Assembly (NCBI RefSeq): GCF_003634315.1 | Contig: NZ_RBXL01000001.1 | Location: 3,080,501 to 3,144,500 of the forward strand | Origin: Thiocapsa rosea | Lineage (GTDB): Bacteria; Pseudomonadota; Gammaproteobacteria; Chromatiales; Chromatiaceae | Direction of reading: 5' to 3' | DNA: 64,000 nt | Part shown: positions 4,144 through 62,973 of the stretch, in pieces | How positions within the stretch are numbered: position 1 is the stretch's first letter | How the letters are laid out: each line of letters opens with the position of its first letter | Made by a program: the position numbers and the translations under genes | Notes under the pieces: generated by a model | Told to the model about the DNA's origin: nothing | The model's database searches: none | Seen by the model: the letters and a program-made list of their open reading frames with translations, nothing else

Positions 4144-4336
4144 TTAAACCGCGTCCAGAGCGAGATGCTCACTTTCGAGTGAACTCGACGTTTGGTGCAT
4201 CCACGGCCCTTAGCAGGTACGCGGTTTAAAATCTATATTTTTTAATCTCTTAAGCCGCGCCGGCTCCAGCGGTCGTCAAATCTGCCGTGGCCGATCCCAT
4301 CCAAAAACATCTCATACCGCGTGGGGCGCGGCTTAA
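4144..4336 (+). repeat. Bipartite palindromic element, copy A (full)
   Basis: Left module 4144-4231 is bounded by TTAAACCGCG and CGCGGTTTAAA. An AT-rich linker follows, then right module 4250-4336 bounded by TTAAGCCGCG and CGCGGCTTAAG. It starts 7 bp after the stop codon of the acyl ligase fusion gene. Its left module is of the same subtype as copies B and C (CTTTCGAGTGA, then GTTTGGTGCATCCACGGCCC). Confidence 0.85.
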
Positions 4337-4394
4337 GTTTAGATCCCGCGGCTGAACGCTTCGTGTTGCATGCCGGGTCATGCAGGCGCGTTGC

Positions 4395-4754
4395 TCAGAG
4401 GAGCTTCACCAACGCTGCGATCGCGGCGACCTGGGCGAACATCAGCGGGATGAGCCACTTGAGTAGATCGACCTTGGAACGCACGATCTCTCCTCGAACC
4501 TGCTCGATCTCTTTCTGAAGGCGGAGCTCGGTTTCTCTGATTTCGCCGCGCATTTGGACAGTCTCGGCCTTAACCAGCTCGATCTCCTTTTGGAGTCGCA
4601 GCTCGGTTTCGCGCAGATGGCCCTGGGTGACCATATCCGGGAGATGTGGATAGCGTTCCTCTAGGCGCTCGAAGGCCTCGGCGATGACGCGCGCACGGGT
4701 GCGGTCGTCGGTGGCCGTGGTCAGGGCTTCGTAGAGTGCGACGCTGGATGACAT
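4395..4754 (-). CDS. Coiled-coil protein with C-terminal membrane anchor
   Basis: This 119-residue protein has a charged helical middle (about 45-95) in which a segment starting ETELRLQKEIE occurs twice, giving a clear heptad coiled coil. It ends in a hydrophobic helix (LIPLMFAQVAAIAALVKLL) that should anchor it in the membrane. The build resembles the DUF1640/CCDC90-like small proteins common in purple sulfur bacteria, whose function is not established. It stands alone between repeat copy A and the Usp gene, with no strong ribosome site. The internal repeat suggests a recent tandem duplication. Confidence 0.7.
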   Translation of the reverse strand: MSSSVALYEALTTATDDRTRARVIAEAFERLEERYPHLPDMVTQGHLRETELRLQKEIELVKAETVQMRGEIRETELRLQKEIEQVRGEIVRSKVDLLKWLIPLMFAQVAAIAALVKLL

Positions 4755-4823
4755 AGGGCGACTATGGAGTGCAATCCGTACGGACGCAAGTCCGAAACTC
4801 GGCGCTTCGGATCGATCCGTGTA

Positions 4824-5630
4824 TCAGCGCCCGATCGCCACCGGACAGCCCAGGGTCTCCAGACTGGTCCAGAGCGAGGCGCGCGCCAGGAGTGGATTGG
4901 TCTCGTCGAGGATGAGCAGATCCATGCCGAGGTTACGGACCGTCGCCGCGAGCCCCGCGGTATCGGTGGCCTCCAGCGGCACCAAGCGGGACTGCTCGCG
5001 CATGGTTCCGAGCTGTTCGAGCACATGGTCGCGCAGCGTCGCCGCATCCGCGGATATCGCCGATTGCAGGATGACGACGAGGCTTGCGGCATGTCGGATC
5101 CCCAGCTCCAGGGCGATCGAGAGGACACGCTCCGCTCCCTCGCTCCCGGTGTAGAGCACGCCGACGACGAGACCGCCGAGAGTCGTTCTCGGTGCGGTCG
5201 GTCGCGGGCGTCGTCGCAGCGGGGCGAAGCGTCCGATCCGCCCCAGTGCGAAGAGTTCCGCATCGAGTCCGGCACCCAGGATCTCGGCCTCGAGATCACC
5301 TCGCCAGACCCGGAACGACCAAGCCACACCCAGCTCGCCCGCAGTGCGTTCAAGGCGTTCGCGCACGCCGCGTGCCGCGGCGCGCAGCTCGCGCTGGAGC
5401 CGGTCCACGTCCAGGGTGCTCTCGCACAGGGTCGCGATCCGCAGCTCGCGCAGAAAGGGCAGTCCGGCGAGACGCAGCAGCTCGGTGTCTTCGACGAAGA
5501 CGCCCTCCAGCTCGGCGTTCAGGGCGGCGGCGATGCCTGCGGCCAACGCCAAGCCCTGCAGGCTGTGCGGGGAGGCGTCCAGTGCGACTGCGATGCGCCG
5601 GATCCGTCCGCCCGGATCTGCAGCGCTCAT
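4824..5630 (-). CDS. Universal stress protein family, two-domain
   Basis: At 268 residues this is about twice the length of a single Usp domain. The N-terminal half begins with the Usp-like RRIAVALDASPHSLQGLALA. The second half contains GLVVGVLYTGSEGAERVLSIA and ends DLLILDETN...LGCPVAIGR, the usual last strand of the fold. I read it as a UspE-like tandem. The start ATG overlaps the stop of the Lon-like protease by 4 bp (ATGA), so the two are cotranscribed and probably translationally coupled. Family members act in the cytosol and often bind ATP. The ATP-loop glycines (GxxGxxxxGS) are not clear here, so nucleotide binding is uncertain. Confidence 0.7.
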   Translation of the reverse strand: MSAADPGGRIRRIAVALDASPHSLQGLALAAGIAAALNAELEGVFVEDTELLRLAGLPFLRELRIATLCESTLDVDRLQRELRAAARGVRERLERTAGELGVAWSFRVWRGDLEAEILGAGLDAELFALGRIGRFAPLRRRPRPTAPRTTLGGLVVGVLYTGSEGAERVLSIALELGIRHAASLVVILQSAISADAATLRDHVLEQLGTMREQSRLVPLEATDTAGLAATVRNLGMDLLILDETNPLLARASLWTSLETLGCPVAIGR

Positions 5631-12164: not shown

Positions 12165-12357
12165 CTAAACCGCGTCTAGAGCAAGATGCTCATTTTCGAG
12201 TCAGTTCGACCTTTGGCGCATCCATAGCCCTTAGCGGGGGCGCGGTTTAAAACTTTTATATTTTAATATCTTAAACCGCGCTGACTCCAACGGTCGTCAA
12301 GTCTGCCGGGGTCGATCCCATCCATAAACAGCGCATACCGCGCCGGGCGCGGTTTAA
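12165..12357 (+). repeat. Bipartite palindromic element, copy B (full)
   Basis: The left module starts CTAAACCGCGTC at 12165 and closes with CGCGGTTTAAAA near 12252. The right module runs from about 12280 (TTAAACCGCGCTGAC) to CGCGGTTTAAG at 12357. The last bases continue directly into AAGGAGG, the ribosome-binding site of the following oxidoreductase gene, so the element forms most of that gene's leader. Confidence 0.85.
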
Positions 12358-28013: not shown

Positions 28014-28103
28014 TTTAAACCGCGTCCAGAGCGAAATGCTTATTTTCGAGTGAGCTTGAGGTTTGGTGCATCCACGGCCCCTTAGCGGAGACGCGTTTTA
28101 AAA
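28014..28103 (+). repeat. Palindromic element, copy C (left module only)
   Basis: TTTAAACCGCGTC at 28014 to ACGCGTTTTAAAA at about 28103 matches the left module of copies A and B closely (CGAGTGAGCTT, then GTTTGGTGCATCCACGGCCC). The right module is absent. This copy lies in the HxlR/thioredoxin-like intergenic region, directly upstream of the HxlR start and not at a gene 3' end. Confidence 0.85.
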
Positions 28104-29122: not shown

Positions 29123-29213
29123 TTTAAACCGCGTCGACTCCGACGTTCGTTTGTCTCTGCGCGTCCGCGAGCCGGCGCCGGTCAATGCATGTCACTCGAA
29201 GACGCGGTTTAAA
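29123..29213 (-). repeat. Palindromic element, copy D (single module, divergent core)
   Basis: TTTAAACCGCGTCGACTCCGACG at 29123 and, at the other side, GACGCGGTTTAAA to 29213. The core differs from other left modules; its start resembles a right module (CTCCGACGTTCGT). The last bases contain the stop codon (TAA) of the group 3b hydrogenase alpha subunit. Confidence 0.7.
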
Positions 29214-30495
29214 CGAACTTCACGTCGAGCATGTGCGTCGAGCAAGAGATGCAGGGGTCGTACGCACGCACCAGCATCTCCAGCGCCAGGGTGATCTCCT
29301 GCTGCGTCCGGTCGAGGATCCCGGGGACGAGCGCGCGCATGTCCAGCTCGATGTTCGCCAGGTTCTGCCCGGTCGGGATGATGCAGTTCGCCCCGACGAT
29401 CGTCCCGTCCTCGATCCTGTAGTGATGGAAGAGGGTCCCGCGCGGCACGTCGGCGGCGCCGACACCTTCGCCCGACATGCGCGTCGGCGCGGCCGGCTCT
29501 TCGGGTTTGATCCCGAGGTCGAGCAACTGGTCGATCAGCAGGATCGCATCCTCCGTGCAATGGACGACCTCGACCGCCTGGGCCGCCGCATTCAGGTAGG
29601 GGTTGATCGTCTTGGGGTGGAGCCCGAGTACCTCAGCCGCGGCCTGCGCGCGGGGGTGCAGCAGATCGTAATTGATGTTGAAGCGCGCGAGCGCCCCGAC
29701 CATGTAGGACTCGCGCCGATGGCGGGTGTGCTTGGCGGATGAATGCGCGACGATGGTCTCGTTGGTCACCTCGCGATACTCGTCGAGTGGCCGGATCCCG
29801 CCGTCGCTGCTGGCGATGGATCCGTCGATGAAGCAGTACTCGTCATCCCGATGCAGTGCGACATATTCGGTGTCGCGCTCGAATGCCGGGAACTCCAGAC
29901 CCTGCAGGAGCTGGATCGTCGCGTCGCAGTCCGCACGCGAGGCGACCAGGCGCTCGCGCAGGGCGCGCAGTTCCGCGGGCTTGGGAAACTGCGTGAAGCC
30001 GCCGACCGTCATGGAGATGGGATGGGTATGGCGTCCGCAGAGGGTCGCGCAGAGATCCCCGGCAAGCTGCTTCATGCGCAATGCGCGCAGCACGATATCC
30101 GGCGCGCTCTTGGCCAGCGGGATCACGCTGCCGAGGCCGAGATAGTCCGGTGCCACCAGCATGTAGATATGCAGGACGTGGCTGTCGAGGATCTCGCCGT
30201 GAAAGTTCAGCTTGCGCAGCAGTGTCGTCTGCAGGCTGGGGGTGACGCCGAGCGCTTGCTCGGTCGCACGCAGGGAGGCCGTCGCGTGCCCGACTGCACA
30301 GATCCCGCAGATGCGCGAGGTGATGTGCGATGCCTCGTCGTAGGCGCGACCGCGCAGCATCGCCTCGAAGAAGCGCGGCGTTTCGACGATCTGCAGATCG
30401 CATTGGGTCAGCTCGCCGTTCTCGACATCCACGACGATGTTGCCGTGCCCCTCGACGCGTGTGACATGATGAACATCGACCTTGAGCGTACTCAT
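29209..30495 (-). CDS. hydA: Group 3b NiFe hydrogenase, large (alpha) subunit
   Basis: This 428-residue catalytic subunit has L1 motif RICGICAVGH and L2 motif DPCISCSTH, with all four nickel-ligand cysteines. After the last His only seven residues remain (MLDVKFV), a short tail expected to be removed by the adjacent maturation protease. The family is cytosolic and NADP(H)-linked (sulfhydrogenase type). The start at 30495 overlaps the delta subunit stop by 4 bp. The stop TAA lies inside repeat copy D. Confidence 0.92.
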   Translation of the reverse strand: MSTLKVDVHHVTRVEGHGNIVVDVENGELTQCDLQIVETPRFFEAMLRGRAYDEASHITSRICGICAVGHATASLRATEQALGVTPSLQTTLLRKLNFHGEILDSHVLHIYMLVAPDYLGLGSVIPLAKSAPDIVLRALRMKQLAGDLCATLCGRHTHPISMTVGGFTQFPKPAELRALRERLVASRADCDATIQLLQGLEFPAFERDTEYVALHRDDEYCFIDGSIASSDGGIRPLDEYREVTNETIVAHSSAKHTRHRRESYMVGALARFNINYDLLHPRAQAAAEVLGLHPKTINPYLNAAAQAVEVVHCTEDAILLIDQLLDLGIKPEEPAAPTRMSGEGVGAADVPRGTLFHHYRIEDGTIVGANCIIPTGQNLANIELDMRALVPGILDRTQQEITLALEMLVRAYDPCISCSTHMLDVKFV

Positions 30496-33483: not shown

Positions 33484-34455
33484 ATGGTCCTAGCATCACT
33501 CTCGGTCGTCCTCGGTCTGGCGCTGCTTCTATGGAGTGCCGATCGCTTCGTCGAAGGCGCTGCGGTGACCGCGAAGCATCTCGGGATGCCGCCCTTGCTG
33601 ATCGGCATGGTCGTCATCGGGTTCGGCACCTCGGCCCCGGAAATGGTGGTCTCGGCGATTGCGGCCTTTCAGGGCAACCCCGGGCTTGCGCTCGGCAACG
33701 CCTATGGCTCGAACATCACCAACATTGCGCTGATCTTGGGTCTCACCGCGATCATCAGCCCCATCGCGGTTCACTCCAGCGTGCTCCGCAAGGAGCTGCC
33801 GATCCTTGCCGGTGTCACCCTCTTCGCCGTGGTGTTGCTCATGGACGGCGAGCTGACCCGCATGGACGCTTGGGCGTTCCTGGGCGTTTTTGCGGCATTG
33901 ATGGGTTGGACCATCTGGCAAGGTCTGCGAGAACGCTCGGATGCCTTGGCCGGGGAGGTCACGCAGGAGCTCGATCAGGCGCGGATGCCGCTGCGCCGAG
34001 CCTTGATTTGGCTGGGCGTTGGCTTGGTCTTCCTGATCATCAGCTCGCGCATGCTGGTCTGGGGATCGGTCGAGATCGCCCATGCCTTGGGCGTGAGCGA
34101 TCTCATCATCGGTCTGACGATCGTTGCGGTGGGTACCTCGCTCCCGGAGCTGGCCTCCTCCGTCATCGCCGCGCGCAAGGGCGAGCATGATCTCGCCCTG
34201 GGCAACATCATCGGGTCGAATCTCTTCAATACGCTCGCCGTGGTCGGGATCGCGGGGGCCATCCATCCGATGCTCGTGCCGCCGGAGGTCATCTCACGCG
34301 ACATGATGGTGATGGGGCTGCTCACGCTGTCCTTGTTCGTGATCGGCTACGGGTTCCGCGGTCCGGGTCGAATCAACCGGGTCGAAGGCATGCTGCTTCT
34401 GGCCTGCTACGTCGGCTATACCGCCTACTTGATCGGCACCGTCTTCGGGGTTTAA
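33484..34455 (+). CDS. Calcium/sodium antiporter (CaCA family, YrbG-like)
   Basis: This 323-residue inner-membrane protein has two homologous halves. Each has an alpha-repeat: GFGTSAPEMVVSAIAA with GNAYGSNITNIALILG in the first, and VAVGTSLPELASSVIAA with GNIIGSNLFNTLAVVG in the second. The GTSxPE motifs bind cations. It has about ten membrane helices and exports Ca2+ in exchange for Na+ or H+. The stop codon TAA is formed inside the GTTTAAACCGCG end of repeat copy E. Confidence 0.93.
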   Translation: MVLASLSVVLGLALLLWSADRFVEGAAVTAKHLGMPPLLIGMVVIGFGTSAPEMVVSAIAAFQGNPGLALGNAYGSNITNIALILGLTAIISPIAVHSSVLRKELPILAGVTLFAVVLLMDGELTRMDAWAFLGVFAALMGWTIWQGLRERSDALAGEVTQELDQARMPLRRALIWLGVGLVFLIISSRMLVWGSVEIAHALGVSDLIIGLTIVAVGTSLPELASSVIAARKGEHDLALGNIIGSNLFNTLAVVGIAGAIHPMLVPPEVISRDMMVMGLLTLSLFVIGYGFRGPGRINRVEGMLLLACYVGYTAYLIGTVFGV

Positions 34456-34646
34456 ACCGCGTCAAGAGCGATATGCGTTGTTTTCATGGTGTGTTTGGCT
34501 TCGGAGATGTCCTCGATCTCGGTGGGGCGCGGTTTAAAATTTAATGTTTTTCAATATTTTAAACCGCGCCGCCTCCAGCGGTCGTCAAGTCTGCCGTGGC
34601 CGGTCCCATCCAAAAACATCGCATACCGCGCTGGGCGCGGTTTAAG
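34451..34646 (+). repeat. Bipartite palindromic element, copy E (full)
   Basis: Left module 34451 to about 34542 (GTTTAAACCGCG to CGCGGTTTAAAA) is of the subtype with GTTTGGCTTCGGAGATGTCC, shared with copies G and H. Right module runs from about 34558 to 34646. The left end supplies the antiporter stop codon. Confidence 0.88.
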
Positions 34647-34799
34647 CGCCTCGAGCGCGCGGGGGCAACACCGCTTGAGTGCGTCGTGAGTCAGCCGAGG
34701 ACAGGGTCTGGATTGATCCAGGTCAGGCTTTGATGTCGGGTCGCGTGTCGACACATTGACGTGGCGCTCGCGAAAACCCTACAGTCCCGCGTTGATTGT

Positions 34800-34992
34800 C
34801 CGGTGCCTCGAAGGCTTTCGCCTTCGGGGTTAAACGGGAAGTCGGTGCGCGGTGCCCTCGGGACCCGCAAAGCCGGCGCTGCCCCCGCAACGGTAGACGA
34901 GTCAAGACGCGGCGAAATGCCACTGTGAGTCATCACGGGAAGGCGCCGCGTCCGGGATCCGATCCCGCTCGTAAGCCCGGAGACCGGCCGGA
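34800..34992 (+). ncRNA. Cobalamin riboswitch
   Basis: The conserved blocks are all visible: TTAAACGGGAAGTCGGTG near 34830-34847, CCCCCGCAACGGT near 34882-34894, TGCCACTG at 34918-34925 and the B12 box AAGCCCGGAGACCGGCC at 34973-34989. It lies upstream of btuB and the cobalamin-salvage genes in the same direction. Binding of adenosylcobalamin should reduce expression of at least btuB. Confidence 0.96.
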
Positions 34993-35028
34993 TGATCGGG
35001 GACCGTTTCGATGTGTCTCGCATGCGTG

Positions 35029-35225: not shown

Positions 35226-37076
35226 ATGAGATTTCCTGTTATGGCGGCGGCTGTGTCGCTGCCCCTCGGTTTGCCTGTCTACGCGGACACGCAGACCCTG
35301 ATCCTCGACCCCTTGGTGGTGACGGCGACGCGAACGCCGGAGACCGAAGGCCAAACCCTGGCCTCCGTGAGCGTGATCGATCGCGACGAGATCGAGCGCC
35401 GTCAGTTTCGCTCGGTTCCGGATGCGCTGCGCGGCCTGCCGGGTGTCTCGATCTCGGGCAGCGGCGGGGCCGGTCAGCCCGCGTCGCTCTTTCTGCGCGG
35501 GACCAATGCCGGTCATGTGCTGGTCCTGATCGACGGCGTGAAGGTCGGGTCGGCGACCCTCGGCACCGCGCCCCTGCAGGATCTTCCGATCGCTCAGATC
35601 GAGCGTATCGAGGTGGTCCGCGGCCCGCGCTCGAGCCTCTATGGCTCGGAGGCGATCGGCGGTGTGATCCAGATCTTCACGCGCCGCGGCGGCGGCGAAT
35701 TGCGACCGCGCTTCAGCGTCGGTGCAGGGAGCTTCGACACCGCGAGCATCTCGGGCGGCATCTCGGGCGGCGGCGAGCGTGGCTGGTTCGACCTCGGCGC
35801 CAACATGGAGCAGACCGACGGGATCGACGCCTGCGAGGGCCGCGCCTTTCCCTTCGCCGGCTGCGGCGTGGACGAGCCGGATCGCGACGGCTATCGCAAT
35901 CTGGGGTTAAGTGCGCGTGCCGGTTATGAGTTCAGCGACCAGGCCAAGGTCGATTTCAGTCTCCTCACCTCCGACAACCGCACCGACTTCGATGGCTCCA
36001 TCTTCTCGGGCAACCTCTCGCGCTCCGAGCAGCAGGTCTTCGGCGTGGAGGGCACCTTGCGTCCGCTCGATGCCTGGACCCTGATCCTCTCGGCCGGTCG
36101 CAGTCAGGATACATACCGGGCGTTTTATGCGGACGCCTTCGTCCCCGAGCGCTTCGTCGACAGCTTCGAGACCGAGCGCGACAGCTTCGGGATCCAGAAC
36201 GATCTCGCCTTGATCCCGGACCAGCTCTTCACCTTGGGTCTGGACTATCAGGTCGACCGCGTCGCGGGCACGGTGGACTACACGGACGACTCGCGCAGCA
36301 ACACGGGCGTCTACGGACAGTATCTCGGCTCCATCGGCGCGAACGAGCTTGCCGCCAGCCTCAGATACGACGACTACCAGCAGTTCGGTGGACAGACGAC
36401 CGGCAATCTGGCGTGGGGTTATCTCTTCGATCAGGGGATTCGCGTGTCGCTGTCCTACGGCACCGCCTTCAAGGCACCCACCTTCAACGATCTCTACTAT
36501 CCCGGATTCGGCAACCCGAATCTGTCCCCGGAGGAGTCGGCCAGTGTCGAGCTGGGTTTGACCGGAACCCTCCCGCTCGGTCGCTGGGAGCTGAGTCTCT
36601 ACGAGACCGACATCGACGACCTGATCGCCTTCGATGCGGCGACGTTCGCGCCGGCCAACATTGCCTCGGCCCGTATCCGAGGCTTCGAGGCGTCCGGGAT
36701 CGTCCAAATCCAAGAGTGGGATCTCGGCGCGAGTCTCACCCTGCTGGATCCCGAAAACCGCTCGAACGGCCCGAATCAGGGTAATCTGTTGCCGCGACGC
36801 CCCGAGCAGATGCTTCAGCTCGACCTCGACCGCCAGTTCGAGCGCTGGTCGGCCGGTCTGAGTGTCTATGTCGCAGGGCGTAGCTTCGACGACCTGGCCA
36901 ACAACGAGCGCCTGGACGGCTATACCCTGTTGGGTCTGCGTGCCGAGTATGCCTTCACCCCGTCGGTGCGGATTCAGGGGCGACTGGAGAACGCACTCGA
37001 CGAGGACTACCAGACCGCGTTTCTGTTCAACCAGCCGGGGAGGGCGTTTTACCTGACCTTGCGATACGAGCCGTAG
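35226..37076 (+). CDS. btuB: TonB-dependent vitamin B12 receptor
   Basis: The protein has 616 residues from the ATG at 35226, which has GGAG 7 bp upstream and begins a signal peptide (MRFPVMAAAVSLPLGLPVYA). The longer upstream frame overlaps the leader. The TonB box region is DPLVVTATRTPE, the plug contains RGTNAGHVLVLIDGVKVG and RIEVVRGPRSSLYGSEAIGGVIQIFTRR, and the protein ends in a 22-strand barrel with the terminal aromatic signature FYLTLRYEP. It imports cobalamin across the outer membrane. Position after the riboswitch and before the cob genes supports B12 as substrate. Confidence 0.93.
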   Translation: MRFPVMAAAVSLPLGLPVYADTQTLILDPLVVTATRTPETEGQTLASVSVIDRDEIERRQFRSVPDALRGLPGVSISGSGGAGQPASLFLRGTNAGHVLVLIDGVKVGSATLGTAPLQDLPIAQIERIEVVRGPRSSLYGSEAIGGVIQIFTRRGGGELRPRFSVGAGSFDTASISGGISGGGERGWFDLGANMEQTDGIDACEGRAFPFAGCGVDEPDRDGYRNLGLSARAGYEFSDQAKVDFSLLTSDNRTDFDGSIFSGNLSRSEQQVFGVEGTLRPLDAWTLILSAGRSQDTYRAFYADAFVPERFVDSFETERDSFGIQNDLALIPDQLFTLGLDYQVDRVAGTVDYTDDSRSNTGVYGQYLGSIGANELAASLRYDDYQQFGGQTTGNLAWGYLFDQGIRVSLSYGTAFKAPTFNDLYYPGFGNPNLSPEESASVELGLTGTLPLGRWELSLYETDIDDLIAFDAATFAPANIASARIRGFEASGIVQIQEWDLGASLTLLDPENRSNGPNQGNLLPRRPEQMLQLDLDRQFERWSAGLSVYVAGRSFDDLANNERLDGYTLLGLRAEYAFTPSVRIQGRLENALDEDYQTAFLFNQPGRAFYLTLRYEP

Positions 37077-37080
37077 AATC

Positions 37081-37187
37081 GCCGCCAGCCGCCAGCCGCC
37101 AGCCGCCAGCCGCCAGCCGCCAGCCGCCAGCCGCCAGCCGCCAGCCGCCAGCCACCAGCCACCAGCCACCAGCCACCAGCCACCAGC
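37081..37187 (+). repeat. Heptanucleotide tandem array 1
   Basis: About 15 head-to-tail units of GCCGCCA, the last five changed to GCCACCA. It starts 4 bp after the btuB stop. Seven-base repeats are out of phase with codons and lie in intergenic DNA. The minus-strand open frame across it is a low-complexity artefact. Confidence 0.95.
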
Positions 37188-37218
37188 GAATAGACGAAGG
37201 CTGATGGCTGGCGGGATG

Positions 37219-37333
37219 AAGCAGGAAGCAGGAGGCAGGAGGCAGGAGGCAGGAGGCAGGAGGCAGGAGGCAGGAAGCAGGAGGCAGGAAGCAGGAGGCA
37301 GGAGGCAGGAGGCAGGAGGCAGGAGGCAGGAGG
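37219..37333 (+). repeat. Heptanucleotide tandem array 2
   Basis: About 16 units of GGAGGCA, with a few units changed to GGAAGCA. It is separated from array 1 by about 30 bp and ends 115 bp before the btuM-like gene. The unit contains a GGAGG core, but it is too far from the start codon to serve as the ribosome site. Confidence 0.95.
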
Positions 37334-37447
37334 CTCCCCCGCAATCGACCCGCTTTCGACACCCCGTGCGACCGCCTACAATGGCTGCACGGGACTTGAG
37401 CAACACCACATTGTCGCCCCGGCGACGCGACCAGGAGACTCGACCTC

Positions 37448-40830: not shown

Positions 40831-41586
40831 GTGGACCTGCGTCCGCTCTGGCTTGCCGGACGTCTCCTGACGCGTCTGCCCTTTCCCGAGCCGAGCCCCT
40901 TCGAGGCGCGACTCTCGGGCCTGTCGGTGCCGTGGTATCCCGCGATCGGTGGGCTGTTGGGCGTGTTGCTGACCTTGGCCGCGACCGCGCTCGCATCCGT
41001 GGATCCGGGTGTCGCGGCGGCCTTGGTTCTGATCCTCTGGGTCTGGTCCACCGGGGCGTTGCACCTGGACGGTCTGGCCGACAGCGCAGACGCCTGGGTC
41101 GGCGGGCTTGCGAGCCGCGAGCGGACCCTGGAGATCATGAAGGACCCGCGTTGCGGACCTGCGGCCGTGACCGCGATCGGGCTCGTCCTGATCGCCAAAT
41201 GGGCCGGGCTCCAGGCCCTGATTGCCGGCGGCACCGTCTGGATTTTGCTGCTGATTCCGCTGTTGGCAAGGGCACAGTTGCCGCTGCTGATGCTGACCAC
41301 ACCCTATGCCCGTGACCGGGGGATGGCCTCCGAGCAGATGGCACAATTGCCGCGTCGCGCGGCGTGGGCGGCAACCCTGATTGCGGGGATTGCCTGTATC
41401 GCGATCGCCGGTTGGATCGGACTCGGGCTATGCGCCGTGACCCTTCTGGTCTTCGGGCTATCGCGCCGAACCATGATGAACCGGATCGAGGGGTTCACGG
41501 GAGATACCGCCGGTGCCCTCGTCGAGATTACGGAGACGGTGCTGCTGCTCGTCGTTGTTGTCCTCTCAGCGGTCTTTACCCCTTAA
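40831..41586 (+). CDS. cobS: Adenosylcobinamide-GDP ribazoletransferase (cobalamin synthase)
   Basis: This 251-residue membrane enzyme has LTRLPFPEPSPFE near the N-terminus and the metal-binding motif GALHLDGLADSADAW. Several hydrophobic helices follow. It joins adenosylcobinamide-GDP and alpha-ribazole, the last step of the pathway. The start is GTG, immediately after the cobC stop. The stop TAA lies inside the TTAAACCGCG end of repeat copy F. Confidence 0.94.
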   Translation: MDLRPLWLAGRLLTRLPFPEPSPFEARLSGLSVPWYPAIGGLLGVLLTLAATALASVDPGVAAALVLILWVWSTGALHLDGLADSADAWVGGLASRERTLEIMKDPRCGPAAVTAIGLVLIAKWAGLQALIAGGTVWILLLIPLLARAQLPLLMLTTPYARDRGMASEQMAQLPRRAAWAATLIAGIACIAIAGWIGLGLCAVTLLVFGLSRRTMMNRIEGFTGDTAGALVEITETVLLLVVVVLSAVFTP

Positions 41587-41609
41587 ACCGCGTCCAGAGC
41601 GAGATGCTA
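41583..41609 (+). repeat. Palindromic element, copy F (truncated left end)
   Basis: CTTAAACCGCGTCCAGAGCG to GAGATGCT matches the first 27 bp of copy A and then stops. The sequence continues directly into the hexanucleotide hairpin element. It supplies the cobS stop codon. Confidence 0.75.
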
Positions 41610-41725
41610 ATGGTGCAGTGTAGCGATTCCGAGACCGTCCGAGATCATTTTCGTTGTCGTTGTCGTTGTCGTTGTCGTAATCGACCATCATACGATTACG
41701 ACAACGACAACGACAACGAACGGTC
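41610..41725. repeat. Hexanucleotide-armed hairpin element, copy 1
   Basis: A conserved lead (GCAGTGTAGCGATTCCGAGA, CGTCCGAGATCATT) is followed by CGTTGT repeated about four times, a short loop, and the complementary ACAACG repeats at 41696-41719. The arms can pair over about 30 bp. It lies between the convergent cobS and CBS-DUF294 genes and could end transcription from both sides. Copy 2 is at 56475-56595. Confidence 0.88.
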
Positions 41726-48390: not shown

Positions 48391-49002
48391 CGCCTTCCTC
48401 CTTGCTTCGTTGGTTGTTTGAATCCTTGGGTGTCCGAATCGGGAGCCCTCTATTGAAGGCGTTCGGAATCGCCTCCTGCGCGGCCGGATGCGACACGGCC
48501 GCAGCGTGGTCGGCGGGGTACCGCCGTCTCGGGAGTCGGGGTGCTGAGGTGTGTTCCGGAATCGCTGCGAGTCGAGATGAAGCGGGGATCATCACGGACG
48601 TGGCTTCGAGCGGCGCCGGCTGCGTCGCTCGGCAGTCGGGCATCGAACACCCTGCGCGGGGACTGAATGTCGGCGGCCTCGTCGTGAAAACAAGCCCGAT
48701 CCGAGCAAGACCGCATCGAGTACCAGGGTGCCGCTCGGAGTGACCGGTTGCAACGCGGCGAGACGTCTGTCGCCCAGAGATGCATTCCATGCGGTACGTC
48801 GGCGACCTTGTTGAGCGTCTCCATCTTCTCTGCTCGTCGTCTTTCGATCTTGGCTTTGCGTGTCCGCGTCAGTATGCGGAGGTGTCCGTATCATTACTAT
48901 CGGAGAACCCCGCTGTTTCAGCTTCTCTTGTCCGGGATCAACGATAGTGAAAATAGGCAGTCTCAATGCCCGATCCCTCGAGACGGAGCGGCATGATATT
49001 AA
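48391..49002. other. Gene-poor region upstream of the PIN gene
   Basis: About 610 bp with no credible gene on either strand. Minus-strand frames such as RLAALQPVTPSGTLVLDAVLLGSGLFS (near 48640-48760) look like possible coding relics but match nothing I know and are interrupted. The AT-rich stretch at 48990-49020 leads into the divergent left module of repeat copy G. Confidence 0.5.
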
Positions 49003-49222
49003 AAATGTTCTTCGTTTTTGTTGAATGTGGCTTCGTCGACGTCCTCTATGTCGGGAGTGGCCTTGCGCATCACCTCCGCCCGGCCTGCAGGTCGCACAGA
49101 GCGCCGAGGGTACACGAGATAACGCCGGAGAAGCGTCGTGCGCGCGCCGGCTCCAGCGGCCGTCAAGTCTGCCGGGGCCGATCCCATCCAAAAACATCGC
49201 ATACCGCGCCGGGCGCGGTTCA
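49003..49222 (-). repeat. Palindromic element, copy G (degenerate left module plus right module)
   Basis: 49141-49222 is a clear right module (GCGCCGGCTCCAGCGG to GGGCGCGGTTCAG). About 49003-49065 aligns by eye with the left module of copies E and H (TGTGGCTTCGTCGACGTCCTC against TTTGGCTTCGGAGATGTCCTC), but the AAACCGCG ends have decayed. The outer end of the right module contains the stop codon (TGA) of glycogen phosphorylase. Confidence 0.75.
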
Positions 49223-51748
49223 GGCCCCGAGAGGCTGCGGCTCGATGCTCCAGATCCGCTCTGCATACTCGCGGATGGATCGGTCCGAGGAGAACTTGCC
49301 CATCCGCGCGACGTTCAGGATGGACATGCGGTCCCACTCCGCGGGCCGGTCGTAGACCGTGCTGATCCTGTCCTGGCACTCCAGATAGGCGCGATAGTCG
49401 GCCAATACCATGAAGGGATCCTGATGGATGAGGTGCTCCGTGAGTGGGCGGAAGAGGTTGGTGTCGCCGTGCGAGAATAGCCCCGAGGCGATGAGATCGA
49501 TGTCCGATTTCAGCTCCTGGTCGCCGTGGTAGTAGTCCCAAGGCCGGTAGCCCTCGTCTTGCTTGCGGCGGACCTCCTCGGCCGTCATGCCGAACAGGAA
49601 GAAGTTTTCCGCTCCAACCTCTTCTCGGATCTCGATATTGGCCCCGTCGAGCGTGCCGACCGTGAGCGCGCCGTTCATCGAGAACTTCATGTTGCCGGTC
49701 CCCGACGCCTCCTTGCCGGCGAGCGAGATCTGCTCGGAGAGATCCGCGGCCGGATACAACCGTTGCCCGTTCTTGACGTTGAAGTCGGGCATGAAGGCGA
49801 CGCGGATATAGCCGTTGACCTGCGGGTCGTTGTTGATCACCTCGGCGACCGCGTTGATGAGCTTGATCATCAGCTTGGCCATGTAATAGCCGGGCGCCGC
49901 TTTGCCGCCGAAGATGAAGGCGCGCGGGACCATGCCGAGATTCGGGTTCTGCTTCAGGCGCTGGTAGACGCGGATGATGTGCAGAACGTTCAGGTGCTGA
50001 CGCTTGTACTCGTGCAGCCGTTTGGCCTGGATGTCGAACATCATGGTCTGCGGATCGAGGAGGACCCCGGCATGGCGCTTCAGCCAGACCGCCAGATCGC
50101 GCTTGGCGGCGGTTTTCACCTCGCGCCAACGCGCCTGGAGCTTGGGATCGTCGGCGTGGGCTTCGAGCTCGCGCAGCGAGTCGAGATCGCGGATCCAGCG
50201 GTCGTGTCCGCACACCTCGGTGATCAGTTCCGCCAGACGCGGGTTGCTGACCACGATGAAGCGACGAGGCGTCACGCCGTTGGTGACGTTGTGAAAGCGC
50301 TCCGGCGCCATCTCGTAGAAATCTTTGAGGAGCGTGGTCTTGATGAGCTCCGAATGCAGCGCGGCGACCCCGTTCACGGCACGGCTGCCGACCACGGCCA
50401 GGTGGGCCATCCGGATCCGCCGCCCGCCGGCTTCGTCGATCAGCGACATGCGCGCCACACGCTCCTCGTCGCCGAGATACCGCACGCGCACCTCGTCGAG
50501 AAAGCGTCGGTTGATCTCGTAGATGATCTCCAGATGGCGAGGCAGCAATCGCTCGAAGAGTGCGACCGACCAGGTCTCCAGTGCCTCCGGCAGCAGGGTG
50601 TGGTTGGTGTAGCAGAAGGTCGCGCGCGTGGTGGCCCAGGCATCGTCCCAGGTCACGGCGTGATCGTCCATGAGCAGACGCATCAGCTCCGCCACGGCGA
50701 TCGCCGGATGGGTGTCGTTGAGCTGGGCGACGAACTTCTCGTGGAAGGTCTCCAGAGGGCCGACGGTGTTCAGATGCAGCCGGATCATGTCCTGAATCGA
50801 GCAGGACACGAAGAAATATTGTTGCTTCAGACGCAGCTCCTTGCCGGCCTCGGGATCGTCGTTCGGATAGAGGACCTTCGAGATGGTCTCGGCCTCGATC
50901 TTGGCGTGGACTGCACCGTAATAGTCCCCGACATTGAAGGTTTGGAAATCGAACGACTCGGTTGCCTCCGCCTTCCAGAGCCTCAGCAGGTTCACGTTGC
51001 CGACCCCGTAACCGAGCACCGGGGTGTCGTAGGCAACGCCGCTGATCACCATATCCGGAATCCAGCGCACACGCGGGCGTTCCGCCTGGTCGCGATAGTG
51101 CTCGGTATGGCCGCCGTACATGACGGGGAAGCTGATCTTGGGCCGCGGGATCTCCCAGGGGTTGCCGTTGCGCAGCCAGGTGTCGCTGCGCTCGACCTGC
51201 CAGCCGTCCTCGATGATCTGGTCGAAGATTCCGAACTCGTAGCGAATCCCGTAGCCGATCGCCGGGATTTGGACCGTCGCCAGCGAATCCATATAACAGG
51301 CGGCCAGCCGACCCAGTCCGCCGTTGCCCAGACCCGGCTCCTCCTCCTCCTCCAGGATGGCCTTGAAATCGAGGTCCAACTCCTCGCCCGCGCGCTGGGC
51401 GACCTCCGCGATCCCGAGATTCACCAGATTGTTGGCCAGATGCGGGCCGAGCAGATACTCGGCCGAGAGATAGCAAACGGTGCGCGCCCGGGATGACTTG
51501 TAGACCTGGGCGGACTTCACCCAGCGCTCCAACATGCGATCGCGCACCGTGAAGGCGGCGGCCATATAGAGATCGTGGGGCGTGGCGACCTCGCGGAAAC
51601 GCCCTTGAATATAGAAGAGGTTGTCGATGTAGGCCTGCTTCAGAGACGCCTTCGACATGCCCGTGCGGGTATGCTCGTGAGACGTCGCCGGGGCCTCGGT
51701 TTCGGTCTCGGCCGGGGCCTCGGGGTCGTGGGCGACTGCTATGTTCAT
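49220..51748 (-). CDS. glgP: Glycogen/starch/alpha-glucan phosphorylase
   Basis: This 842-residue GT35 enzyme has GLGNGGLGRLAACYMDSLATV near the N-terminus and FNVGDYYGAV. The C-terminal pyridoxal phosphate region reads EASGTGNMKFSMNGALTVGTLDGANIEI. It removes glucose 1-phosphate from stored glycogen in the cytosol. The length is typical. The lysine that binds PLP is normally a few residues before the GTGNMK motif (here GKEASGTG). It lies downstream of phosphoketolase on the same strand, separated by repeat copy H. Confidence 0.95.
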   Translation of the reverse strand: MNIAVAHDPEAPAETETEAPATSHEHTRTGMSKASLKQAYIDNLFYIQGRFREVATPHDLYMAAAFTVRDRMLERWVKSAQVYKSSRARTVCYLSAEYLLGPHLANNLVNLGIAEVAQRAGEELDLDFKAILEEEEEPGLGNGGLGRLAACYMDSLATVQIPAIGYGIRYEFGIFDQIIEDGWQVERSDTWLRNGNPWEIPRPKISFPVMYGGHTEHYRDQAERPRVRWIPDMVISGVAYDTPVLGYGVGNVNLLRLWKAEATESFDFQTFNVGDYYGAVHAKIEAETISKVLYPNDDPEAGKELRLKQQYFFVSCSIQDMIRLHLNTVGPLETFHEKFVAQLNDTHPAIAVAELMRLLMDDHAVTWDDAWATTRATFCYTNHTLLPEALETWSVALFERLLPRHLEIIYEINRRFLDEVRVRYLGDEERVARMSLIDEAGGRRIRMAHLAVVGSRAVNGVAALHSELIKTTLLKDFYEMAPERFHNVTNGVTPRRFIVVSNPRLAELITEVCGHDRWIRDLDSLRELEAHADDPKLQARWREVKTAAKRDLAVWLKRHAGVLLDPQTMMFDIQAKRLHEYKRQHLNVLHIIRVYQRLKQNPNLGMVPRAFIFGGKAAPGYYMAKLMIKLINAVAEVINNDPQVNGYIRVAFMPDFNVKNGQRLYPAADLSEQISLAGKEASGTGNMKFSMNGALTVGTLDGANIEIREEVGAENFFLFGMTAEEVRRKQDEGYRPWDYYHGDQELKSDIDLIASGLFSHGDTNLFRPLTEHLIHQDPFMVLADYRAYLECQDRISTVYDRPAEWDRMSILNVARMGKFSSDRSIREYAERIWSIEPQPLGA

Positions 51749-51781: not shown

Positions 51782-51978
51782 CTTAAACCGCGTTCAGAGC
51801 GATATGCGTCATTTTCACTTTTCGTTTGGCTTTGGAGATATCCTCGATCTCGGTGCGACGCGGTTTAAAATTTAATTTTTTCAATATTTTAAACCGCGCC
51901 AGCTCCGACAGTCGTCGGAGCTGGCGCGGCCAAGCCATTCCAACAAATGACGCATACCGCACCGGGCGCGGTTTAAAA
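51782..51978 (-). repeat. Bipartite palindromic element, copy H (full, with hairpin right module)
   Basis: Left module 51782 to about 51870 is of the E/G subtype (GTTTGGCTTTGGAGATATCC). The right module begins at 51890 and contains a perfect 16-bp stem at 51894-51909 and 51914-51929 with a 4-nt loop, not present in other copies. The outer right end to 51978 contains the TAA stop of phosphoketolase. Confidence 0.88.
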
Positions 51979-54369
51979 TGGCCAAATCCAGTCATCGACA
52001 TCGGGCTTGTCGATGCCGTGCTCGTGCGCGTAGTTTCTGCAGTCGATCTGCATGTCGCGCAGCTTCTCCTTCACATGCGCACCCGCGACCTGCAGACGCG
52101 GCACCCGGTTGATGACGTCGATGGCCAGGCTGAAGCGGTCGATCTCGTTCTCGATGGCGAGTTCCAGCGGCGTGTTGATATTGCCCTTTTCCTTGTAGCC
52201 GCGCACGTGCAGGTTCTTGTGATTGGTGCGGCGGTAGGCGAGGCGATGGATCAACCAGGGATAGCCGTGGAAGTTGAAGATCACCGGCCGGTCTTTGGTG
52301 AAAAGGCTGTCGAAGTCGTGATCGCTCAGTCCGTGGGGATGCTCCCCGGCCGGCTGCATCCGGAAGAGATCCACGACATTGATGAAGCGCAGTCGGATGT
52401 CGGGGAAGTGCTCGCGCAGCAGGGCGGTGGCGGCCAGCGCCTCCTTGGTCGGGATGTCGCCGCAGCCGACCATGACGGCGTCGGGCTCGACACCCTGGTC
52501 GTTGCTCGCCCAATCCCAGATGCCGATGCCCTTGGTGCAGTGTTTGATGGCGGCGTCCATGTCCAGGTACTGGAGATGGTTCTGTTTGTCGGCCACGATC
52601 ACGTTGATGTCGTCGCGGCTCTGTAGACAGTGGTCGACTGTCGAGAGCAGGGTGTTCACGTCCGGCGGCAGATAGATGCGGGTGACCTCCGGATTCTTGT
52701 TCACCACGACATCCAGAAAGCCCGGATCCTGATGGGTGAAACCGTTGTGGTCCTGGCGCCAGACGGTCGAGGTGATCAAGAGGTTTAGAGAGGAGATGCG
52801 CGCCCGCCAGGGGATCTCCTCGCAGATCGCCAGCCACTTGGCGTGCTGGTTGTACATGCTGTCGATGACATGGACGAAGGCCTCGTAGGTCGCAAAGAAG
52901 CCGTGCCGACCGGTCAGGACATAGCCCTCGTACCAGCCCTCCAAGGTGTGCTCGGAGAGCATCTCGAGCACGCGACCGTCCGGGGAGAGCTCCCCGCCTT
53001 GCGCGTCTTCCTCCTTGTATTCGCAGAGCCAGAGCTTCTTGGAGACCTCGTAAATCGCGTCGAGCTTGTTCGAGGTGTTCTCGTCCGGGCCGAAGACACG
53101 GAAGTTGTCCATGTTCTTGGCCATGACGTCGCGCAGCAGCTCACCCGTCGGCTTGGTGTTCATGGCGCGGATCTTCCCCGGCGCGGCCACCTGAAGGGCA
53201 TAGTCGCGAAAGTCCGGCATGCGCAATGCCCGGCGCAACAGTCCGCCGTTCGCGTGCGGATTCGCACTCATGCGCAGCGTCCCCTCCGGGGCCAGCGCGC
53301 GCAGCTCCGGGATCAGCCTGCCCGCGCCGTCGAACAGCTCCTCGGGCTTGTAGCTGCGCAGCCAGTCTTCGAGCTGTTTGAGATGGGCCGGGTTGTCGTG
53401 CATGCCCGACAGCGGCACCTGATGGGCACGCCAGAAGCCCTCGACCTTCTTGCCGTCGACCTCTGCGGGGCCGGTCCAGCCCTTGGGTGTGCGCAGCACG
53501 ATCATCGGCCAATGGCCGCGCGTCGCCGTGCCGCTCGTGCGGGCCTCCTGTTGAAAAGCGCGGATCTGGGCCAGACAGGCATCCAAGGTGGCGGCCATGG
53601 TCTGATGCATCGTCATGGGGTCGTCGCCCTCGACGAAGAAGGGCGTCCAGCCGTAACCACGCATCAGCTCGGCAAGCTCCTCGCGCGGGATGCGTGCGAG
53701 CAGGGTCGGGTTGTTGATCTTGTAGCCGTTCAGATGGAGGATCGGCAGCACCGCGCCGTCGCGGACGGGGTTGAGAAACTTGCTCGAATGCCAGGAGGTC
53801 GCGAGCGGTCCGGTCTCGGCCTCGCCGTCGCCGACCGCTACGGCGACCAAAAGGTTTGGATTGTCGAAGGCAGCACCGAAGGCATGCGAGATCGAGTAAC
53901 CCAGCTCGCCGCCCTCGTGGATGGAGCCAGGCGTCTCCGGCGTGCAGTGCGAGCCGATGCCGCCCGGGAAGGAGAACTGCTTGAAGAAGGCGCGCATGCC
54001 TTCTTCATCCTCGCTCTTATTGGGGTAGATCTCGGAGTAGGTGCCCTCCAGATACACAGGTGCGAGCACGCCCGGTGCGCCGTGACCCGGACCGGCGAGA
54101 AAGATCGCCTCCTGTGCATGCTCCCGGATGATGCGGTTGAGATGCACGTACATGAAGGACAGGCCGGGACTCGCGCCCCAATGACCGAGCAGGCGTTTCT
54201 TCAGATGGCCCTCGGCGAGCGGCTCGCGCAGCAGCGGGTTGTCCCGAAGGTAGATCATGCCCGCAGCGAGATAGTTGCAGGCGCGCCAGTAGGCATCGAT
54301 CTTGGAGAGAAGCTCGGGGGACAAAGGATTGGCGTCGATCTCGGTCGTGGAGAGGCTGCTTGTCGTCAT
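51973..54369 (-). CDS. xfp: Xylulose-5-phosphate/fructose-6-phosphate phosphoketolase
   Basis: This 798-residue thiamine-diphosphate enzyme starts at the ATG at 54369 with GGAGA upstream ([17 protein letters not shown]). Signatures: [66 protein letters not shown] and [16 protein letters not shown], the ThDP-binding part. It splits xylulose 5-phosphate or fructose 6-phosphate into acetyl phosphate and a shorter sugar phosphate. The stop codon lies inside repeat copy H. Confidence 0.96.
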
Positions 54370-56461: not shown

Positions 56462-56474
56462 CGCTGAAGGTCTA

Positions 56475-56595
56475 GTGGCGCAGTGCAGAGATTCCGAGAA
56501 CGTCCGAGATCATTATCGTTGTCGTTGTCGTTGTCGTTGTCGTAGTCGTATCGAGGGTCGATTACGACAACGACAACGACAACGACAAAGAACGG
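56475..56595. repeat. Hexanucleotide-armed hairpin element, copy 2
   Basis: The lead GCGCAGTGCAGAGATTCCGAGA and CGTCCGAGATCATT closely matches copy 1. Then CGTTGT units at 56517-56540 face ACAACG units at 56565-56588 across a loop containing CGTATCGAGGGTCG. It lies 14 bp downstream of the pgl stop and may form its terminator or an mRNA end structure. Confidence 0.88.
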
Positions 56596-59115: not shown

Positions 59116-59116
59116 C

Positions 59117-61095: not shown

Positions 61096-62201
61096 AGCTT
61101 CGCCTCCAATTCCTCGACCGTGACGGGCTGACGGTGGGCGACCTCGGCCTTGGTCTGTTTCTTGGCCGATACCGCGACCGCACCGCCGACGACCGCACCC
61201 AGCACACCTGCGGCCAGGACGTTCATGCCGGACGCCGAGGTCGGCACCGAGACCGCGTTGTAGAAGCCGCCGGCATCCCAAAATTTTGGCTCGGAGCAGC
61301 CCAGACAGGGATGTCCGGCCTCGACCGGCCAACTGGTGCCGTCGTTCCAGCGCATGGTCGCGCAGGCGTTGTAGGTGGTCGGGCCCTTGCATCCGAGTTC
61401 ATACAGACACCAGCCGAGACGCGCGCCTTCGTCGTCGAAGGTCTTGGCGAAGAGGCCCCGGTCGTAGAAGGGTCGGCGATAGCAGCGGTCGTGGATCGAC
61501 TGACCGTAGAAGGCCATCGGACGGTTGTAGGCGTCGAGTTCGGGCAGCCGTCCGAAGGTGAGGTAATGGGCGATGACGCCCGTGATCACCATCGGGATCG
61601 GCGGACAGCCCGAGACGTTGATGACCGGCTTGTTCTTCACCAGATCCATCACCGACATGGCGCCGGTCGGATTGGGGTTGGCCGCGGGCAGACCGCCGAA
61701 GGTCGCACAGGAGCCGACCGCGATGACGGCGGCGGCGTTCTCCACCGTCTCCATCAGCATGGCGTAGTTGCTGTGACCGGCGACGGTCGAGAATCCCGGG
61801 TTGGCTTTCGGACCCGGGATGGAGCCGTCGACGATGACCAGATACTCGCCCGGATTCGCAGCCATCGCCTCCTCGCGTGCGTGTTCGGCGGCATCGCCGG
61901 CAGCGGCCTGCAGGGTGTGGTGATAATCCAGCGAGATGACGTCGAGGATCAGATCTTCGAGCGTCGGGGCATGGCTGCGGGTTAGCGACTCGGTACAGCC
62001 GGTGCATTCCTGGAACGACAGCCAGATGACCGACGGTCGCTTGGCCTTCTCCAGCGCCGCGGCGATCGCCGGCGCCATGCTCGGCGGCAGCGCCATCATC
62101 GAGGCGGTCGCGGCACAGAACTTCAGGAAGCCACGGCGCGAGACGCCGCGTTCGCGAAGGCTCTCGCCGAGTGTTTTCTCAGTGGGTTTACGGGCAGCCA
62201 T
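61092..62201 (-). CDS. hynS: NiFe hydrogenase small subunit (HynS)
   Basis: The protein has 369 residues from the ATG at 62201, which has GGAGGG upstream. The longer frame begins inside hupH. The Tat signal is GVSRRGFLKFCAATAS. Cluster ligands are in FQECTGCTESLTRS, VGSCATFGG and GCPPIPMV, with a later CLYELGCKGPTTYNAC and HPCLGCSEPKFWD. A hydrophobic C-terminal helix (MNVLAAGVLGAVVGGAVAV) anchors it. The mature enzyme is therefore exported with HynL by the Tat path. Confidence 0.95.
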   Translation of the reverse strand: MAARKPTEKTLGESLRERGVSRRGFLKFCAATASMMALPPSMAPAIAAALEKAKRPSVIWLSFQECTGCTESLTRSHAPTLEDLILDVISLDYHHTLQAAAGDAAEHAREEAMAANPGEYLVIVDGSIPGPKANPGFSTVAGHSNYAMLMETVENAAAVIAVGSCATFGGLPAANPNPTGAMSVMDLVKNKPVINVSGCPPIPMVITGVIAHYLTFGRLPELDAYNRPMAFYGQSIHDRCYRRPFYDRGLFAKTFDDEGARLGWCLYELGCKGPTTYNACATMRWNDGTSWPVEAGHPCLGCSEPKFWDAGGFYNAVSVPTSASGMNVLAAGVLGAVVGGAVAVSAKKQTKAEVAHRQPVTVEELEAKL

Positions 62202-62218
62202 AGTCCCTCCTTCAGATG

Positions 62219-62677
62219 TCAGGACGCGAGAGGCGGGTCGCTCTGGTCCGGGTTCAAGCGGGCGTCGAGCGCGGCGATCGCGTCGTTGAGATCCTGCGGC
62301 TGCGGACACAGGATCTCGGGCACAGTCGCGATCTCGAGATGCAGGGCGAGGCGATGCGCCTCGGAATTCAGATAATCGACCAGCCAGACCCCGGGGATGG
62401 CGGTCTCTTGCACGCGTGTCGGACCGAGCGCATCGATGCTGGCTTGGACCTCGCCGGTGCCCAGCACCGAGAGCAAGTGCTCCAAGTCGCCGGGGCCGAA
62501 GGGCATCGCCTTCAGATCGATCTTGGTGGTCTCGCCGGTACTGATCAGACGCGCCAAGGCGTGGCGGACTTCATGCAGAACGGGTTCGGCATTGCCGTAT
62601 CCTTGCGGATGCGGATCAGCCTCGGGCACGACCGAGCCGCTTTCGACGACGACGGGAATCTGATCCAGCAACGACAT
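62219..62677 (-). CDS. hupH: HupH/HyaF-like hydrogenase expression protein
   Basis: This 152-residue protein has the HupH C-terminal domain pattern: LHEVRHALARLISTGETTKIDLKAMPFGPGDLEHLLSVLG, then ETAIPGVWLVDYLNSEA and IATVPEILCPQ. It is about half the length of full HupH, so it is a single-domain version. Such proteins assist maturation of the hydrogenase small subunit Fe-S clusters. It is the first gene of the hyn operon, 17 bp before hynS. Confidence 0.85.
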   Translation of the reverse strand: MSLLDQIPVVVESGSVVPEADPHPQGYGNAEPVLHEVRHALARLISTGETTKIDLKAMPFGPGDLEHLLSVLGTGEVQASIDALGPTRVQETAIPGVWLVDYLNSEAHRLALHLEIATVPEILCPQPQDLNDAIAALDARLNPDQSDPPLAS

Positions 62678-62771
62678 ACAACATACCTCGCCTTATCCGC
62701 CTGGAATTCTAGGCGCTTTGCCGCCTCCCGGATTTGATGCAGCGCAGCTAATTAGAAAGTTAGCAAACTCG

Positions 62772-62973
62772 AATGATCCGAACCGCGTCACTGTGGTTCA
62801 TCCGGGTGCTGGAGGGTGTTCGAACGCTAGCGGATTCCGAGACTCTCCGCTGTGACGCGGTTCGGATGATTTATTTTTTAATCTCTTAAACCGCGCTGGC
62901 TCCAGCGGCCATCAAGTCTGCCGGGGCCAATCCCGTCCAAAAAACATCGCATGCCGCGCTGGGCGCGGTTTAA
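62772..62973 (-). repeat. Bipartite palindromic element, copy I (full, unusual left module)
   Basis: Left module 62772-62871 has 20-bp near-perfect inverted ends (ATGATCCGAACCGCGTCAC and its complement), and its core contains GCGGATTCCGAGACTCTCCG, similar to the lead of the hexanucleotide hairpins. Right module 62885-62973 is normal. The outer right end contains the TAA stop of agmatine deiminase. Confidence 0.85.

What the first reader, a model, noticed from the sequence alone, without database searches (positions are those of the whole stretch)
4144..62973. A dispersed family of bipartite palindromic elements (about 195 bp) in intergenic DNA
At least nine copies (4144, 12165, 28014, 29123, 34451, 41583, 49003, 51782, 62772) share AAACCGCG/CGCGGTTT ends. 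Full copies (A, B, E, H, I) are two modules: a left one of about 90 bp and a right one of about 85 bp, each closed by the same inverted ends and joined by a T-rich linker. C and F carry only left-module sequence, D is a single odd module, G has a decayed left module. No gene is encoded. The copy density is very high for one 64-kb window. It may be a MITE, a REP/BIME-like repeat or a structured RNA element not yet described for this lineage.
Basis: seen in the sequence. Interest (0 to 1): 0.75.

Follow-up and report, generated by a model that had tools for sequence, protein, structure and literature searches.

The report
Palindromic mobile repeats replacing stop codons
A family of short, gene-free palindromic DNA repeats is scattered through purple sulfur bacteria; about half the copies sampled sit exactly on the stop codon of a neighbouring gene and supply a new stop, so they look like small mobile elements that can land there without changing the protein.

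Summary
The repeats are real. The unit is an 86-88 bp module closed by a conserved 12-bp stem (YTRAACCGCGYC...GRCGCGGTTYAR). Left and reverse-complemented right modules are homologues; the ~194-bp copy is two modules tail to tail around an AT-rich linker (44 of 47 neighbouring pairs). Forty 20-kb stretches of the genome hold 139 modules, suggesting 850-1,060 genome-wide. Named hits are Chromatiaceae (capped list); in a class sample of 274 genomes only the own genome matched.

54 of 109 called elements have an end exactly on a called gene's stop codon, always in one register: the element supplies the TAA/TGA. Fifteen distinct filled sites have an empty counterpart in another genome; the gap is exactly 4 nt at 13, and 11 of these 13 tetranucleotides fit Y(TA/TG/CA)R; 7 of the 15 are stop codons in the empty genome. 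One stop carries different, oppositely oriented copies in different species.

Best reading: a non-autonomous MITE-like element moved in trans by an unidentified enzyme. It is not a RAYT-REP by flanking: 15 RAYT loci have no module within 1.3 kb. GTAG-REPs also supply stops, so this is a new variant of a known kind.

The parts
4144..4229 (+). A, left module (L1 type)
4230..4249 (.). A, AT-rich linker (20 nt)
4250..4336 (-). A, right module (R1 type); stem carries a paired change AAGCCGCG/CGCGGCTT
12165..12250 (+). B, left module (L1); orthologous copies in G001 and G002, no element in G009
12271..12357 (-). B, right module (R1)
28015..28101 (+). C, complete single left module; G002 has an empty site
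29124..29212 (-). D, divergent single module; gene 29209-30495 (-) ends in it; shared with G002
34452..34537 (+). E, left module (L2); its TAA is the stop of gene 33484-34455 (Na/Ca exchanger); empty in other Thiocapsa
34538..34558 (.). E, AT-rich linker (21 nt)
34559..34645 (-). E, right module (R1)
41583..41608 (+). F, truncated head; its TAA is the stop of gene 40831-41586
49143..49223 (-). G, right module (R1) with decayed tail end; upstream part 48999-49070 resembles a decayed L2 by eye
51783..51868 (+). H, left module (L2)
51889..51976 (-). H, right module (R2); its TAA is the stop of the phosphoketolase gene 51973-54369 (-); empty in G002 and G009
62778..62865 (.). I, left divergent module with a 16-bp perfect stem (read by eye); right part of it also present in G001
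62886..62973 (-). I, right module (R1) with linker on its inner side; its TAA is the stop of gene 62970-63962 (-)

Best explanation
A non-autonomous, MITE-like mobile element family of Chromatiaceae. The moving unit is most likely the ~194-bp composite: two homologous 86-88 bp modules in inverted, tail-to-tail arrangement, so that both outer ends show the same 'head' (YTRAACCGCGYCC..GCG..ATGC), around a 20-nt AT-rich linker. SHOWN: the layout, the fixed module length, the covarying outer stem, the family-wide spread, empty sites, and insertion exactly at a four-base site that is often a stop codon. INFERRED: an enzyme acting in trans, not identified, recognises the outward heads (perhaps as hairpins) and inserts the element at Y(TA/TG/CA)R; the element's own terminal TA..TA takes the place of the target's central dinucleotide. 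Stop codons preceded by a pyrimidine (YTGA, YTAA, YTAG) fit that target, and the element's end carries TAA in the same register, so the protein is unchanged. Insertions inside genes are presumably purged, which leaves stop codons and spacers. Single modules are partly composites that lost one arm.
For: Pattern TTTAAACCGCG: 388 in own genome vs 2 for the reversed control. Of 180 candidate end pairs in 864 kb (reversed-end control 6), 151 are 84-89 bp long. 44 of 47 neighbouring module pairs are tail to tail; linker 20-21 nt in 31 of 47. 57 gene 3' ends (54 of 109 elements) have their stop exactly at the element's TRA, one register only; 51 TAA and 6 TGA, whereas other stops are 466 TGA, 127 TAG, 98 TAA. 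39 filled/empty comparisons, gap 4 nt in 34; 15 distinct sites, 7 at stop codons of the empty genome. At the phosphoketolase stop G000 reads R2-L2, G001 and G003 L1-R1, G005 L1-R2, G004 and G008 a single R1, G002 and G009 empty: at least two insertions at one nucleotide is the simplest account. Single L/R modules: 13 of 39 have >=70% AT beside the tail, 0 of 39 beside the head, as expected for decayed composites.
Against: No autonomous copy and no enzyme found: 43 outward head pairs 350-6000 bp apart in 1.46 Mb share no inner sequence >=300 bp. The ends do not show an ordinary target duplication: right ends are TYAR, the complement of the left, and targets with TG or CA are flanked by TA in the filled genome. 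Empty could mean excised. Two of 13 four-base targets do not fit the motif (ATAG, TGAG). Even for this motif stops are occupied more than nearby flank sites (57 of 435 vs 32 of 1,039; 1.8-fold for CTGA alone), so the motif does not explain everything. Subtype differences at one site could partly be gene conversion.
Confidence: 0.68

Rival explanations
1. RAYT-mobilised REP/BIME elements: the modules are large REPs and the composites BIMEs, moved by a Y1 transposase of the RAYT group.
For: Nine PF01797 hits in the own genome and many in relatives; BIME-like inverted pairs; 3'-of-gene location; published GTAG-REPs also supply stop codons (PMC3733652, section read).
Against: 15 RAYT loci (all 9 of the own genome, 3 of 19 in G001, 3 of 14 in G004) have no module within 1,314 bp, and 10 have none within about 3 kb. 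One RAYT (L169) is flanked by another palindrome, GGTGTAGGGGCGACTTAAGTCGCCCCTACACC. Genomes with no exact-end modules (G006, G007, G010) also carry RAYTs. No GTAG or CGTC tag was noticed by eye.
Confidence: 0.1
2. Selected RNA element: a 3'-UTR hairpin acting at the stop codon (terminator, stabiliser or ribosome-stalling element), kept by selection rather than mobility.
For: Outer stem covaries: 7 of 12 pairs with two-sided changes, covariation 0.206 vs 0.121 in shuffles, 0 of 500. RNA folds are stable: z <= -2 in 9 of 12 modules, z -8.9 for composite E.
Against: Any palindrome folds well. The interior has no shared fold. The count of further pair types does not exceed shuffles (386 of 500 reach it). 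Both orientations occur next to stops (12 R, 9 L, 4 other), and 11 of 89 divergent gaps also hold one. An effect on the mRNA is possible as a by-product.
Confidence: 0.12
3. Ordinary TA-duplicating MITE of an IS630/Tc1-mariner-type transposase (TA duplication recalled, not looked up).
For: Filled ends read TA..TA and 5 of the 15 empty sites can be read as a TA centre.
Against: 8 of the 13 four-base empty sites have a TG or CA centre, and 7 of these 8 show TA on both sides when filled.
Confidence: 0.1

Closest known systems
REP/BIME elements with RAYT transposases (GTAG and CGTC families, PMC3733652; RAYTs, PMC2817692)
   Same: Hundreds of copies, palindromic, paired in opposite orientation, intergenic and mostly 3' of genes; [quoted passage not shown]
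   Different: 86-88 bp modules instead of 20-40 bp; YTRA end giving TAA/TGA instead of GTAG; no modules flanking the 15 RAYT loci tested; four-base empty sites seen here.
Bacterial MITEs and ERIC/RUP/Correia-type repeats (recalled; families not searched here)
   Same: Short, non-coding, inverted-repeat, dispersed, with clean empty sites in relatives.
   Different: Each half is itself closed by its own stem; the target's central dinucleotide appears replaced by TA; half of the copies sit on stop codons. No parent transposon was found.
Integron attC sites (recalled)
   Same: Imperfect palindromes of similar size that can lie at a stop codon.
   Different: Ends by eye do not fit GTTRRRY; no cassettes; an integrase was not searched for.

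Membership tests
MITE (non-autonomous inverted-repeat transposable element) | Terminal inverted repeats, short, non-coding, many copies | tested here: met
MITE (non-autonomous inverted-repeat transposable element) | Insertion polymorphism with clean empty sites | tested here: met
   15 distinct sites, gap 4 nt at 13
MITE (non-autonomous inverted-repeat transposable element) | Target-site duplication | tested here: inconclusive
   Flanks resume after 4 nt, but the ends are inverted copies (YTRA/TYAR) and TG/CA targets become TA
MITE (non-autonomous inverted-repeat transposable element) | Related autonomous transposon with the same ends | tested here: inconclusive
   None among 43 outward head pairs in 1.46 Mb; whole genomes and ISfinder not searched for it
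REP/BIME with RAYT | RAYT genes delimited by two inverted copies of the repeat (PMC2817692, passage) | tested here: not met
   15 RAYT loci, nearest module 1,314 bp
REP/BIME with RAYT | 20-40 bp palindrome with GTAG or CGTC at one end (PMC3733652, listing and passages) | tested here: not met
   Modules 86-88 bp, ends YTRAACCGCG
Known Rfam RNA family | Match above the gathering score | tested here: not met
   Only a cobalamin riboswitch at 34784-35006
ISfinder family | Match to a listed IS or MITE end | not testable with these tools
   ISfinder not available

The most novel reading that the evidence does not exclude
A mobile element lineage whose landing preference is in effect the stop codon: the end of the element is a stop codon in register, the target is the pyrimidine-preceded stop, and the element's own TA replaces the target's centre by a recombination chemistry unlike standard target duplication. 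Insertion at a stop is translation-neutral, which would explain how one family could reach hundreds of copies in small intergenic space.
Probability: 0.25. Interest if true: 0.75.

Novelty: new variant of a known kind. Interest (0 to 1): 0.52.

Why it matters
If right, it shows a simple way for a dense mobile repeat to be harmless: end in a stop codon and insert at stop codons. It also makes a testable prediction (target Y(TA/TG/CA)R, TA at both ends after insertion) that would lead to the unknown enzyme, and it means that many 3' ends in these photosynthetic bacteria carry a transcribed hairpin from the stop codon onward. Annotation of stops, terminators and small RNAs in Chromatiaceae should take these repeats into account.

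Tried and rejected
RAYT link: examined at 15 loci and not supported. Autonomous parent: outward head pairs and 40 orphan heads against 424 full copies in 2.5 Mb; by eye the orphans are mostly truncated or internally deleted copies. Plasmids and phages: no match for composite E (records near the own genome may be left out). Coevolution of the two arms of a composite: own arms pair slightly better than swapped arms (-75.0 vs -73.8 kcal/mol, 128 of 5,000 permutations as good), too weak to use; 38 of 42 composites have some arm-to-arm pairs in the predicted fold. Common interior RNA fold: none. The simple idea that the tetranucleotide alone explains the stop preference: only partly. Evenness of sampling: the 40 stretches lie about 98 kb apart in the first half of the chromosome and wider in the second, and several hold no element, so the direct projection (about 1,060 modules) is probably high; scaling by exact-end modules (47 in the sample, 286 in the genome) gives about 850.

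Gene positions come from a crude codon-usage caller written here, not from annotation. One of the 109 elements (window 34372-34455) is a false call. Three elements at stretch edges and 9 overlapping a called gene by more than 12 nt were left out of the distance list. In one search, 108 of 147 flank pairs were filled or had other gaps and were not used as empty sites.

Literature searches: AAACCGCG in text, 356 papers, 20 seen in the listing, none on this; Chromatiaceae with repetitive extragenic palindromic, 0; Thiocapsa with palindromic, 10 listed, passages of one read; Chromatiaceae with miniature inverted-repeat transposable, 1 listed and not read; broader searches (listings only). No description of this family was seen in these; subscription papers and ISfinder are outside them.
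Full report
OBSERVATION. AAACCGCG is found 23 times in the window, 2.6 expected. Repeat finding and a covariance model recover the nine reported places (F weakly, and five window modules were in the model's training set).

ANATOMY. In 864 kb (forty 20-kb stretches plus the window), 55 modules with perfect 10-nt ends have lengths 85-89 bp in 54 cases (one of 97). With degenerate ends 151 of 180 candidate pairs fall at 84-89 bp; a reversed-end control gives 6 pairs. Length stays fixed although interiors diverge strongly. Oriented by a common head, modules fall into an L family (86 bp, 55 modules), an R family (87-88 bp, 57) and a diverse remainder (39). Left modules and reverse-complemented right modules are homologues. 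Of 47 neighbouring pairs, 44 are tail to tail with heads outward; the linker is 20-21 nt in 31 of 47 and AT-rich. Of the 42 composites with the short linker, 35 join one L and one R.

STRUCTURE. On 50 modules chosen across the families, the only common structure is the outer 12-bp stem: 96.3% of cells paired, 7 of 12 pairs with two-sided changes, covariation 0.206 against 0.121 in shuffles (0 of 500 as high); the number of further pair types is no higher than in shuffles (386 of 500). Nine of 12 modules folded as RNA have z <= -2; composite E folds as one long hairpin, z -8.9. Paired end changes (for example CTGAACCG..CGGTTCAG, TTAAAGCG..CGCTTTAA) are visible by eye. They fit selection for pairing or template-switch correction of palindromes (the latter recalled).

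SPREAD. TTTAAACCGCG occurs 388 times in the own genome, 2 for the reversed control. Two perfect ends 58-82 nt apart: 286 in the own genome, 59-212 in seven of ten others of the genus, 17 in one genome of another genus, none in the other 47 of 56 genomes. The covariance model reaches 18 of 116 family genomes in 12 of 61 genera and, in a looser search, two of the three genus members that had no exact pair (G006, G010, not G007). In 274 genomes drawn from the class, only the own genome matched at E <= 1e-4 (strict filters).

STOP CODONS. With a crude gene caller, 56 of 108 gene 3' ends that face a non-overlapping element end exactly 4 nt into it, at the TRA of YTRAACCGCG; the recount gives 57 ends on 54 of 109 elements. 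No other offset comes near (7 at 6 nt). At these ends the stop is TAA in 51 and TGA in 6; elsewhere TGA 466, TAG 127, TAA 98. For single modules the stop lies at the head in 26 of 32 cases.

EMPTY SITES. In 2.99 Mb from the own genome and relatives (377 elements), 39 filled/empty comparisons were found; the gap is 4 nt in 34. They are 15 distinct sites, 13 with a 4-nt gap: CTGA/TCAG at five (four read as stops with TGA plus the E site), TCAA/TTGA at two, CTAA at two, CTAG, TTGG, and two that do not fit Y(TA/TG/CA)R: ATAG and TGAG. So 11 of 13 fit. Sites A and B, with gaps of 1 and 3, can be read as TTAA and CCAA. Seven of the 15 are the stop codon of a called gene in the empty genome, at offset zero. 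Where the target centre is TG or CA, the filled genome shows TA at both ends at 7 of 8 sites. Thus the element does not show an ordinary duplication; it brings its own TA. 'Empty' is taken as the state before insertion, which is an inference.

RECURRENT LANDING. Behind the phosphoketolase gene, in gene direction, G000 carries R2-L2, G001 and G003 L1-R1, G005 L1-R2, G004 and G008 one R1, while G002 and G009 are empty with CTGA. The opposite orientation in G000 is most simply an independent insertion at the same nucleotide. Gene conversion may explain part of the subtype differences: at a second site G002 and G005 carry R1-L1 and G000 R1-L2 in the same orientation.

WHY STOPS. Stops fitting Y(TA/TG/CA)R are occupied in 57 of 435 cases, such sites in the next 80 nt of 3' flank in 32 of 1,039 (ratio 4.3); for CTGA/TCAG alone 57 of 255 against 32 of 260 (ratio 1.8, p = 0.003). 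The target motif and purging from genes explain much of the coincidence, but not all of it.

MECHANISM AND NOVELTY. Best reading: a trans-mobilised, MITE-like composite whose ends carry TAA in register with the stop it replaces. The enzyme is unknown: RAYTs are not flanked by modules (15 loci), no parent element appeared, and plasmid and phage collections gave no match. Decay of composites into singles is supported by AT-rich linker-like sequence beside the tail in 13 of 39 single L/R modules against 0 of 39 beside the head. Published GTAG-REPs also provide stop codons to neighbouring ORFs (PMC3733652, section 15 read), so supplying a stop is not new in itself; the large two-stem module, the four-base replacement and the recurrent landing are what differ.

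Noticed in passing
window 34784-35006: Cobalamin riboswitch (Rfam RF00174, 108 bits), just downstream of element E.
   Followed up: no
window 41607-41683 and 56472-56548: A second dispersed repeat with GTTGTC runs, 91% alike; the first copy follows directly on truncated head F.
   Followed up: no
window 37067-37341: Two 7-nt tandem arrays (GCCGCCA and GGCAGGA units) between called genes.
   Followed up: no
L169:2843-2879 and 3465-3501: A RAYT gene flanked by a different palindrome, GGTGTAGGGGCGACTTAAGTCGCCCC, probably its own REP family.
   Followed up: partly
L072:11259, L074:17600, L100:16673: Ten-base duplications of the element's end at the stop (such as CTGAACCGCG followed by CTAAACCGCG), perhaps scars of an earlier copy.
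   Followed up: no
L072:3520, L091:14034, L104:12037, L107:12580: Several elements are followed by GTGATTTCCGG-like sequence, possibly another dispersed repeat.
   Followed up: no
L193:4413, L145:1989, L090:2775: Chimeric or internally deleted copies: two heads fused, R2-R1 hybrid, a 25-bp remnant.
   Followed up: no
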